Shown piece by piece: positions 613-29,714 of a stretch of DNA of 64,000 bases. The position numbers and the translations under genes were made by a program. The notes below the pieces were generated by a model that did not search any database, was not told the DNA's origin, and worked only from the letters and a program-made list of their open reading frames with translations. Position 1 is the first letter of the stretch; every line of letters starts with the position of its first letter. The DNA is taken from positions 1-64,000 of IMG/VR virus record IMGVR_UViG_3300036466_000273; one strand, given 5' to 3'. The stretch comes from a virus.

Positions 613-829
613 GAGAAATCTAATGAAACGAGAAAAATTTAAGAGAAATCTAGAGAGGGCGGAACTCTCAATTAATTCGCAGTAATTTTCAACAAAAAAT
701 AGAAAAAATGCAATTTTTATTTGACTTTAATTCAAGTTATAGTAGATACAGCTTTCCTCTTAACCGGATTTTATTAGTTGTTTTCGATATTTATATTTTT
801 AATATTCATTAAAATCTTTTTAGCTCTAC

Positions 830-921
830 CGAAGACTTCCTTTAGGGTAGAAAAACCAAAAGTCGTAAACGCTCGACGGGGAGGCAAGCGTTCACGACTT
901 CCCTACCTACGGAAGTCTTCG
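830..921. ncRNA. Candidate structured RNA with three stacked helices
   Basis: CGAAGACTTCC (830-840) pairs perfectly with GGAAGTCTTCG (911-921). Inside, GGGTAG (845-850) pairs with CTACCT (903-908), and the 14-base arm 860-873 pairs with 887-900 with a single mismatch. The 13-base apical loop (874-886) displays GGGGAGG, a Shine-Dalgarno-like sequence. The pairings are seen directly; that this is an expressed RNA, and its strand, are inference because the palindrome reads similarly both ways. Confidence 0.5.
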
Positions 922-1066
922 TATATCTAACTGTTCGTTATATACTATATATTTTAGCATATTTCAACGAAAAATACAAGAATAATTTTCTCATGGGATG
1001 TTAGAACTTGATTATCTAGGTTTTTATTATTTTAATTTGCAGGGAGCATAAAGCTCCTCTAGTAAT

Positions 1067-1122
1067 CTCACCAGATTGCACTAATCATGCGACGAAGTCG
1101 CGTATCTGTGCAATCTGGTGAG
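1067..1122. other. Long perfect hairpin with nested stem
   Basis: CTCACCAGATTGCAC (1067-1081) is the exact reverse complement of 1108-1122. Inside the loop GCGAC-gaa-GTCGC (1089-1101) forms a second stem. There is no T-run on either side, so it may be an RNA-stability or control element rather than a terminator. The gene that follows contains a similar short motif at about 2501-2525 (ttgcacta followed by GCGAC-tgt-GTCGC). Confidence 0.6.
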
Positions 1123-1229: not shown

Positions 1230-1276
1230 AGCTATATAACGATGGAAATTTACTTAATGAAAAGGAGGAAATGGAC

Positions 1277-2671
1277 ATGATAGATAAAACTAAGGTATTT
1301 TATGTAATTCAATTTAAGGATGAAAACTGTTTCAAATGTGGGTTCTCTCACGCTTCTAGCATAGAGGAAGCAAAAGAAAAGTTAGAGAAGAATTTGCCAA
1401 AGTTTGACTATCTTTTAATTGAACAAGGGTACGATAAAGGCAAAGAGACTGCTTTGTTAAACAAAGTAAATTGTGGTTATGAACCCAAAGACCTATTTAC
1501 AGTTAAAGGCAGAAAAAGGTACGCTGTTAGAGGTAACCGAAAATTCTTCACACTTCCAGATGGAGTAACTATTAAGTCTTTAATAGATGGAGATGAGCTG
1601 TGTTATGTATGGGTTGTTAAAGATAGACTAGCATTGAAAATGACTAAAAACAAACCCTTAGAGTATTCTTGGTGCTCAGTTCCTTGCACAATAAAAGAAG
1701 GAAAAAGATTAATTAACATTTTCAAAAGTATTACAATCCCAGTAGAATCTAATAGTAAAAAAGAATATTGTTTTAAGTTTGATAGAGAAAGACCTAAGTT
1801 GGATGATGTACTCTTAGCAATTGATGGCTCTCTTAGAATATTAATTGTTGAAAGATGTGGAGATTGGTATCTCACCAGGTATACTAAAGGGAGCTTAGAA
1901 GAGCCAACTAAGGGTTTCGAGATTGTATTTAGAAAACTAATGTCTGAATCTGATGCAAAACAATTTAAGACTAAATTCTTCTCTCTAGGTGGCGGTGGAG
2001 AAAAAGTAAACTTTGATTATAATATAGGGTATAGACGAGTAATAAAGGTTGCTGAGGATGAAATAGATGAGTTTATTAGTAATGCTCTTTCAATGGATTC
2101 CCCTATAGAAGCCCCCAGACTTCTTTGGTTGTTAAAAACTGGAGAGACATATATTTTGAAAAATTCCCAACAACCTTTAGCAGTATGGGCTTCAGAACTA
2201 TTAGAAACTAAAAATCCTGAAGTTATTTTAGCTGTTCCTTATTCTAATAAACTAAAGAAGGGGTTAGAGGATAATAGTGACAAGAAATCAGTAAAGAAAG
2301 ATGAATACTCAATAGAGCTACGAAATTTTAAGAAAGATCCAATTGAGATTTATAAGAGGTGTAAAGAAGAGCTAGAATTCTTTGCTTACCTACTGTATTT
2401 TCCAGAACTAGGTATGTATAGATATGGCGCTACTAAATTATCTAGCCAAGATGCAGTACCAAAGCAAAAGATTTTTACCTCTCAAAAATGCTCACTAATT
2501 TGCACTAAATACGCGACTGTGTCGCAAGCTAAGTACGAGATGAGTAGAATTGATGAAGTATTTGAACGTATAGAAGACCACCGAGAAGACGGATGTTACT
2601 TCAGGCTAGGAAAATATAAAGAGGATAAATTAGAAACTGATTTCTTAAATAATAACTTTGTAAAGGAGTAG
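1277..2671 (+). CDS. Large early protein of unknown function
   Basis: About 464 residues; no family recognised. The N-terminus reads as an alpha/beta segment (KVFYVIQF then DENCFKCGF) and a small glycine-rich turn (SLGGGGEK) lies near the middle; no membrane segment or obvious catalytic motif is seen. The ATG at 1277 is preferred over 1271 because AGGAGG (1263-1268) lies 8 bases before 1277 but only 2 before 1271. It is the first and by far the largest gene of the P1 operon, followed after 4 bases by the small Cys-rich gene. Its strong, dedicated promoter suggests early expression; a takeover role would be a guess. Confidence 0.8.
   Translation: MIDKTKVFYVIQFKDENCFKCGFSHASSIEEAKEKLEKNLPKFDYLLIEQGYDKGKETALLNKVNCGYEPKDLFTVKGRKRYAVRGNRKFFTLPDGVTIKSLIDGDELCYVWVVKDRLALKMTKNKPLEYSWCSVPCTIKEGKRLINIFKSITIPVESNSKKEYCFKFDRERPKLDDVLLAIDGSLRILIVERCGDWYLTRYTKGSLEEPTKGFEIVFRKLMSESDAKQFKTKFFSLGGGGEKVNFDYNIGYRRVIKVAEDEIDEFISNALSMDSPIEAPRLLWLLKTGETYILKNSQQPLAVWASELLETKNPEVILAVPYSNKLKKGLEDNSDKKSVKKDEYSIELRNFKKDPIEIYKRCKEELEFFAYLLYFPELGMYRYGATKLSSQDAVPKQKIFTSQKCSLICTKYATVSQAKYEMSRIDEVFERIEDHREDGCYFRLGKYKEDKLETDFLNNNFVKE
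2513..2525. repeat. GC-rich mini-hairpin inside a gene
   Basis: GCGAC-tgt-GTCGC inside the P1 gene. Same type as the stems at 52, 504, 1089 and 3435. Confidence 0.45.
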
Positions 2672-2943: not shown

Positions 2944-3132
2944 ATGAGTAAAGTTTTTTGTAGTGATTGTAAATATTGTATGGCAGAACATGAAAATGAT
3001 GTAGATTCTAAGTGTAAACACCTAGAAAATAGAATTAATAATTGGTATGGTGTAGTTTTTAATCTGACGTGTTCAGAGAAAAACAAAGATAATGATTGTA
3101 GTTGGTTTGAGCATTGGACGGATATTGAGTAA
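2944..3132 (+). CDS. Cys-rich zinc-finger-like microprotein, copy 2
   Basis: A 62-residue paralogue of the preceding gene: SKVFCSDCKYC at the N-terminus and NDCSWFEHW at the C-terminus, with two cysteines between. AAGGAG (2931-2936) precedes the ATG. The pair arose by tandem duplication and has since diverged. A zinc-binding role is inferred from the cysteine pattern only. Confidence 0.75.
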   Translation: MSKVFCSDCKYCMAEHENDVDSKCKHLENRINNWYGVVFNLTCSEKNKDNDCSWFEHWTDIE

Positions 3133-3145
3133 TCAGGAGTAGAAA

Positions 3146-3313
3146 ATGAAAAAGGCATTAATAGTTGGGAATGCTTCAAACTACTTCATCTTTTTAATGA
3201 AAGAGCAAGGGTATGAAATAGTATACTATGAGGACTGCCCTGAAAATATTCTAGGCTTAGAATTTGATATTATTTGGATTGATGAGGAGATTAGAAATGA
3301 AAAATCGTTATAG
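3146..3313 (+). CDS. Small protein of unknown function (55 aa)
   Basis: A 55-residue ORF beginning MKKALIVGN, with AGGAG (3135-3139) 6 bases ahead of its ATG. The start resembles the first strand and turn of a nucleotide-binding fold, but the protein is too short to judge. It overlaps the start of the next gene by 17 bases. Real on the basis of its Shine-Dalgarno site and its fit between neighbours. Confidence 0.6.
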   Translation: MKKALIVGNASNYFIFLMKEQGYEIVYYEDCPENILGLEFDIIWIDEEIRNEKSL

Positions 3314-7236: not shown

Positions 7237-7248
7237 CTAAAATAGTAT

Positions 7249-7277
7249 TTGACAATTTCCTTGGTTTCCGTTATAAT
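7249..7277 (+). promoter_or_regulatory. Sigma70-type promoter P3 with 15-bp perfect inverted repeat
   Basis: TTGACA (7249-7254), 17-base spacer, TATAAT (7272-7277). Spacer bases 7256-7270 are the exact reverse complement of leader bases 7295-7309, and the downstream arm touches the Shine-Dalgarno GGGAG (7310-7314). This is the strongest member of the promoter family. Confidence 0.92.
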
Positions 7278-7319
7278 AGTATTATAAACAATGGCGGAAA
7301 CCAAGGAAAGGGAGTTAGT

Positions 7320-29623: not shown

Positions 29624-29633
29624 AATAAATTAT

Positions 29634-29705
29634 AGGGGTATAGTTCTAATTGGTCGAATTGCGGTTAACTTACCGTAGATGGGAGTTCGAATCTCCCTGC
29701 CCCTA
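29634..29705 (+). tRNA. Aberrant tRNA, identity unclear (AAC or TAA region)
   Basis: Acceptor AGGGGTA/TGCCCCT and T arm GGGAG-TTCGAAT-CTCCC are intact, but the anticodon arm GCGGT-TAACTT-ACCGT leaves only six loop bases instead of seven, and no CCA is encoded (the 3' end reads A then TACAT). A normal loop would need one more base, so the anticodon cannot be read safely. It resembles a decayed relative of the tRNA-Trp gene two places upstream by its acceptor and GTAGATGGG stretch. Confidence 0.65.
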
Positions 29706-29714
29706 TACATTAAA

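What the first reader, a model, noticed from the sequence alone, without database searches (positions are those of the whole stretch)
830..921. Large three-helix palindromic RNA candidate in a gene-free region
An 11-bp outer helix, a short middle helix and a 14-bp inner helix with one mismatch enclose a loop showing GGGGAGG, an exposed ribosome-binding-like sequence. The region has no ORF. A small RNA that titrates ribosomes or an RNA-binding protein, or a DNA structure at an origin, are both possible.
Basis: partly seen in the sequence, partly recalled or inferred. Interest (0 to 1): 0.6.

Follow-up and report, generated by a model that had tools for sequence, protein, structure and literature searches.

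The report
Orphan hairpin RNA of T5-like phage
A T5-like bacterial virus carries a long, very stable hairpin that most likely is a small non-coding RNA read from the strand opposite to the one first supposed; what it does in infection is not yet known.

Summary
The hairpin at 830-921 is real. It is one of the two strongest structural outliers of its phage, a T5-like genome of about 88.5 kb. A close relative (G002) keeps the flanks, the gene order and a hairpin at the same place. There it is that genome's strongest structure (z -10.8 on -), but most of the stem sequence has changed. The inner helix can be matched: of 15 alignable pairs, 10 are unchanged, 3 changed on one side, 1 compensated, 1 broken. 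The evidence favours the minus strand. Folding is about 10-13 kcal/mol better there. A leftward promoter (-35 at about 979, extended -10 at about 951) is conserved in both phages and is the best non-training match in this genome to the phage's own promoter model. No Rfam family matches. The hairpin has no terminator U-tract, no DnaA box was found nearby, and there is no skew switch. Best reading: an orphan phage-encoded structured RNA. Its function is inferred, and the family has two members here.

The parts
830..921 (-). Long irregular hairpin (about 37 bp on the minus strand) with apical CCUCCCC
   Evidence: strand folding z -6.3 on -, -5.5 on +; second structural outlier of the genome; a hairpin at the same place in relative L066 4670-4770, z -10.8 on -
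887..902 (-). 5' arm of inner helix (GGAAGUCGUGAACGCU), alignable to relative GGAA-UCGUGAUCGCU
   Evidence: local alignment (10 of 2000 shuffles reach the score); pair list
859..873 (-). 3' arm of inner helix; pairing kept in the relative although most of the sequence differs (1 compensatory pair, 3 one-sided, 1 broken)
875..884 (-). Apical loop region with CCUCCC, shared with the relative
945..983 (-). Leftward promoter: -35 TTGTAT, 17-nt spacer, TGC, -10 TAAAAT; inferred start near 944
   Evidence: Best non-training hit in the genome to a matrix from 19 phage promoters (13.0 bits); 16.0 at the same place in G002; 2 of 20 simulated genomes have a site at or above 12.9
740..779 (-). Conserved block downstream of hairpin on - (CTAATAAAATCCGGTTAAGAGGAAAGCTGTATCTA), possible 3' part of the RNA
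   Evidence: Nearly invariant between window and L066; one copy per genome
690..710 (-). U-rich tract, possible 3' end of the transcript (weak)
   Evidence: UUUUUUCUAUUUUUU here, UUUUUUCGUUUUUU in L066, no strong stem before it

Best explanation
It is a phage-encoded structured non-coding RNA, transcribed leftward (minus strand) from a host-sigma70-type promoter whose -10 is at about 946-951. Transcription would start near 944, the hairpin 921-830 would form at the 5' end, and the RNA would continue through a conserved tail (779-740) to a U-rich tract near 710-690. Shown by sequence: the hairpin, its conserved position and pairing, and the conserved promoter sequence. Inferred: that it is transcribed, where it ends, and what it does. 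The most likely action is in trans: the long stem protects the RNA and presents the C-rich apical loop (CCUCCC), which could pair with purine-rich ribosome-binding sites of host or phage mRNAs. A protein-binding role of the stem-loop is the main alternative within this reading.
For: Structure far beyond shuffles on both strands, better on -. Relative G002 has the same gene order and conserved flanks with a hairpin in the same place, the strongest structure of its genome. Inner helix keeps 14 of 15 alignable pairs, one by compensation and three by one-sided change. On - the two hairpins form 7 G.U pairs, against 2 on +. The leftward promoter is the best non-training site in G000 for a matrix trained on the phage's own promoters and is also found in G002, which was not used for training. 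A conserved block follows the hairpin on -. The + strand promoter-like site at 721 is not conserved. The promoter segment of the relative also matches a Novosibvirus (T5-like) intergenic site oriented toward phoH, with a TTGCAA-17-TATAAT promoter.
Against: Only two independent sequences, so covariation is thin (one full compensation). The similarity of the hairpins is modest (10 of 2000 shuffles reach it). Helix lengths outside the inner helix differ between the two phages. The 7:2 G.U bias is not significant on its own. The promoter's -35 in this window is weak (TTGTAT). No clear terminator. No expression data. Binding to ribosome-binding sites rests only on the loop sequence.
Confidence: 0.6

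Rival explanations
1. A DNA element: a palindrome acting as cruciform or single-strand hairpin, for example for replication, packaging or a T5-type injection stop, with no RNA role.
For: The gene-free region holds several other palindromes (483-540, 1067-1122). The strongest fold in the first 30 kb of T5 lies in its gene-free injection-stop region. DNA folding is also significant.
Against: Pairing is better on one strand through G.U pairs. A phage promoter conserved in both genomes sits 25-30 nt upstream in the matching direction. No DnaA box, no skew switch. Terminal repeats were not seen: the contigs close into a circle map of about 88.5 kb, though collapsed repeats cannot be excluded.
Confidence: 0.2
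2. A stable double-stranded RNA stem that serves as an RNase III processing site or as a decoy for a host RNA-binding or RNA-sensing protein; stem shape matters, stem sequence does not.
For: Stem sequence largely replaced while a long hairpin remains; length about 37-41 bp on -.
Against: The apical CCUCCC and the 5' arm of the inner helix are shared, suggesting that sequence matters too. No coding RNA on either side that would need processing.
Confidence: 0.13
3. One reading: a + strand RNA that exposes GGGGAGG and titrates ribosomes.
For: The loop does show GGGGAGG on + in this window; a promoter-like TTGACT/TAGATA lies at 721-748.
Against: The relative pairs the GGGAGG in a helix and lacks that promoter; folding is 10-13 kcal/mol weaker on +.
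Confidence: 0.04
4. An intrinsic terminator or simple transcription punctuation.
For: Strong hairpin between two genes.
Against: No U-run follows on either strand (tails TATATCTAAC on + and GTAGAGCTAA on -); the scan finds no terminator here. The rightward gene has its own terminator-like palindrome at 483-540.
Confidence: 0.03

Closest known systems
Bacterial small RNAs with C-rich loops that pair with Shine-Dalgarno regions (e.g. S. aureus RNAIII, PMC2837412; Listeria LhrC, PMC4132741)
   Same: C-rich apical loop complementary to ribosome-binding sites, presented on stable stems
   Different: No sequence relation shown; single hairpin, in a lytic-type phage; no target or expression known. 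The two papers were seen only as search results; the mechanism is from general knowledge
Phage-associated structured RNAs such as GOLLD (PMC12286853, seen as a search result)
   Same: Structured non-coding RNA of a kind known from phage genomes
   Different: About 250 nt at most against a giant ornate RNA; one hairpin; no Rfam match
T5 injection-stop / terminal-repeat non-coding region (AY543070, 9140-10149)
   Same: T5-like phage, gene-free early region with strong hairpins
   Different: No sequence match to any phage record for this region; leftward promoter and RNA-like pairing here

Membership tests
Known Rfam RNA family | covariance-model score at or above gathering | tested here: not met
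   Only tRNAs pass in the window; sub-threshold hits are far below gathering
Phage-encoded structured small RNA (general kind) | stable structure beyond composition | tested here: met
   z -6.3 here and -10.8 in the relative
Phage-encoded structured small RNA (general kind) | conserved pairing with sequence change | tested here: inconclusive
   One compensatory and three one-sided changes, one broken pair, two sequences only
Phage-encoded structured small RNA (general kind) | own promoter | tested here: met
   Conserved promoter-matrix hit in both genomes, sequence evidence only
Phage-encoded structured small RNA (general kind) | expressed transcript | not testable with these tools
   No RNA data held
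C-rich-loop small RNAs acting on Shine-Dalgarno sites | conserved C-rich unpaired loop | tested here: inconclusive
   CCUCCC shared; exposed in the window, partly paired (CCUC/GAGG) in the relative
Intrinsic terminator | GC-rich stem followed at once by a U-run | tested here: not met
Replication origin | DnaA boxes or skew switch | tested here: not met

The most novel reading that the evidence does not exclude
A previously undescribed family of T5-like phage regulatory RNAs whose stems turn over quickly while a CCUCCC apical motif, promoter and tail are kept, so that the RNA interferes with ribosome-binding sites of host or phage messages, or baits a host RNA sensor.
Probability: 0.25. Interest if true: 0.6.

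Novelty: new member of a known kind. Interest (0 to 1): 0.38.

Why it matters
Small RNAs of lytic phages are little known. A strongly structured RNA with its own promoter and a kept loop gives a single, small, testable target for phage control of host or phage messages in T5-like phages. If it is only a DNA palindrome, it is ordinary.

Tried and rejected
Searches that found no homolog beyond G002: blastn of the region in phages and plasmids, hairpin arm pattern and flank patterns in viral contigs and one in genome contigs, apical motif pattern in viral contigs with a fold filter (only the window and G002 stand out of 50 hits), neighbour protein alone and as an alignment. More distant T5-like contigs G005, G006, G007, G009 and G010 show no comparable CCUCC-capped hairpin among their top folds. 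The neighbour 466-aa protein has no family match at cut-off, and its predicted structure is poor (pLDDT 43.5), so no fold search was made. A pseudoknot between the apical CCUC and GAGG of the 3' block is possible by eye but is only 4 bp and was not pursued. No covariance model was built, because two sequences with an uncertain alignment would not support one.

Full report
What the window is. The window is bases 1-64000 of an 86,107-base virus record. It is a T5-like phage: DNA polymerase 45% identical to Klebsiella T5-like phages, the T5-type replication module at 30-49 kb, tRNAs at 25-30 kb, tail genes on the minus strand from 50 kb, terminase further right. A nearly identical contig (G001) runs past the right end of the record and back into window bases 1-127, so the map closes at about 88.5 kb and the finding is internal, not at an assembly end.

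The observation. The 11-bp outer helix (830-840/911-921), a short middle helix and a long inner helix are present. Against 200 dinucleotide shuffles the 112-nt stretch folds at z -5.45 on + and -6.34 on -, with no shuffle as good. Scanning 110-nt windows across the genome, it is the second strongest outlier after the neighbouring palindrome at 1067-1122.

A relative. IMGVR_UViG_3300035041_000007 (G002, 87,919 bases; locus L066) has the same arrangement. The upstream 113-aa putative DNA-binding protein is 99% identical; the downstream orphan protein is 31% identical. The blocks just outside the hairpin are 57-90% identical in 30-column steps, but the hairpin blocks are only 23-47% identical. 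Nevertheless L066 4670-4770 folds into a longer hairpin, the strongest structure of that genome (z -8.2 on +, -10.8 on -). A local alignment of the two hairpins on the minus strand reaches a score that 10 of 2000 shuffles reach. It joins the 5' arm of the inner helix (GGAAGUCGUGAACGCU / GGAAUCGUGAUCGCU) and the apical CCUCCC. The 3' arms look different yet both pair: 15 alignable pairs give 10 unchanged, 3 changed on one side, 1 compensatory (A-U to U-A) and 1 broken. The outer helices cannot be aligned.

Which strand. On the minus strand the two hairpins are 10 and 13 kcal/mol more stable, because A.C mismatches on + are G.U pairs on - (7 G.U on -, 2 on +). I trained a matrix on the 19 strict promoters of this phage (TTGAC...17...TATAAT). 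Its best further site in the whole genome is on the minus strand at 983-945 (ATTCTTGTATTTTTCGTTGAAATATGCTAAAATATATAG, 13.0 bits). The same place in G002, not used for training, scores 16.0. Only 2 of 20 simulated genomes hold a site at or above 12.9. Both copies also have TG one base before the -10. The start would lie near 944, some 23 nt before the hairpin. This promoter segment of the relative also matches (80%) a promoter region reading toward phoH in Novosibvirus phages, which are T5-like. The promoter-like site on + at 721 is not kept in the relative.

Rest of the transcript. Downstream on the minus strand comes an A/U-rich linker and then a block nearly invariant in both phages (CTAATAAAATCC(G)GTTAAGAGGAAAGCTGTATCTA), followed by a U-rich tract. 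No open reading frame of note lies there. The hairpin has no U-run on either side, so it is not an intrinsic terminator.

Interpretation. The best reading is a phage-encoded, leftward, structured non-coding RNA. That it is an RNA gene follows from structure, strand bias, conserved promoter and conserved tail; expression is not shown. How it acts is inference: the C-rich loop is complementary to purine-rich ribosome-binding sites, as in known C-rich-loop small RNAs (PMC2837412, PMC4132741; seen as search results). In the relative, however, part of this motif is paired, so this is a lead, not a test. A decoy or RNase III role of the stem is the main alternative among RNA readings, and a DNA palindrome the main non-RNA alternative; T5 itself has its strongest fold of the first 30 kb in its injection-stop region.

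Limits. Two sequences are too few for a covariation claim. All scans of viral contigs and one of genome contigs were used, and no third homolog was found. The collections may leave out near records.

Noticed in passing
window 1067-1122; L066 4895-4955; L066 about 3120-3160; L081 tail: Intergenic palindromes with a GC-rich inner stem and a triloop that is GAA in one phage and TTC in the relative (GCGACGAAGTCGC against GCGACTTCGTCGC; CGGCGAAGCCG against CGGCTTCGCCG), as if loops invert by template switching.
   Followed up: partly
window 7245-7309: A strong promoter (7245-7283) whose spacer TTTCCTTGGTTTCCG is repeated as a perfect 15-bp inverted copy at 7295-7309, so the promoter lies within a hairpin; possible autoregulation.
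   Followed up: no
L003 5840-6107 and L081 (G001) tail: Tandem array of about 22 bp (ATGTTAGTAAAATTTAGTACGA) at the right end of the record, where the assembly broke.
   Followed up: no
window 1271-2671: 466-aa orphan protein, 31% identical to the relative's 496-aa allele while the gene upstream is 99% identical; no family match. The N-terminal 65 residues are predicted as beta-beta-alpha-beta-alpha, which resembles a GIY-YIG-like topology (guess).
   Followed up: partly
L081 (G001) tail, reading frame with ATGGCCAAAAGTGGTGCACTTCGTGCACCACTTTTGGCG: A palindrome inside a coding sequence that differs in the relative (GTGGTGCACGAAGTGCACTC), suggesting mobile or inverting palindromes within genes.
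   Followed up: no
window 29633-29706: tRNA gene with an unassigned four-base anticodon call (aact) inside the tRNA cluster.
   Followed up: no
G004 (114,484 bases; L073, L078): Contig starts within the 1067-1122 palindrome region, and its right end encodes an unrelated-looking terminase and portal; possibly chimeric.
   Followed up: no
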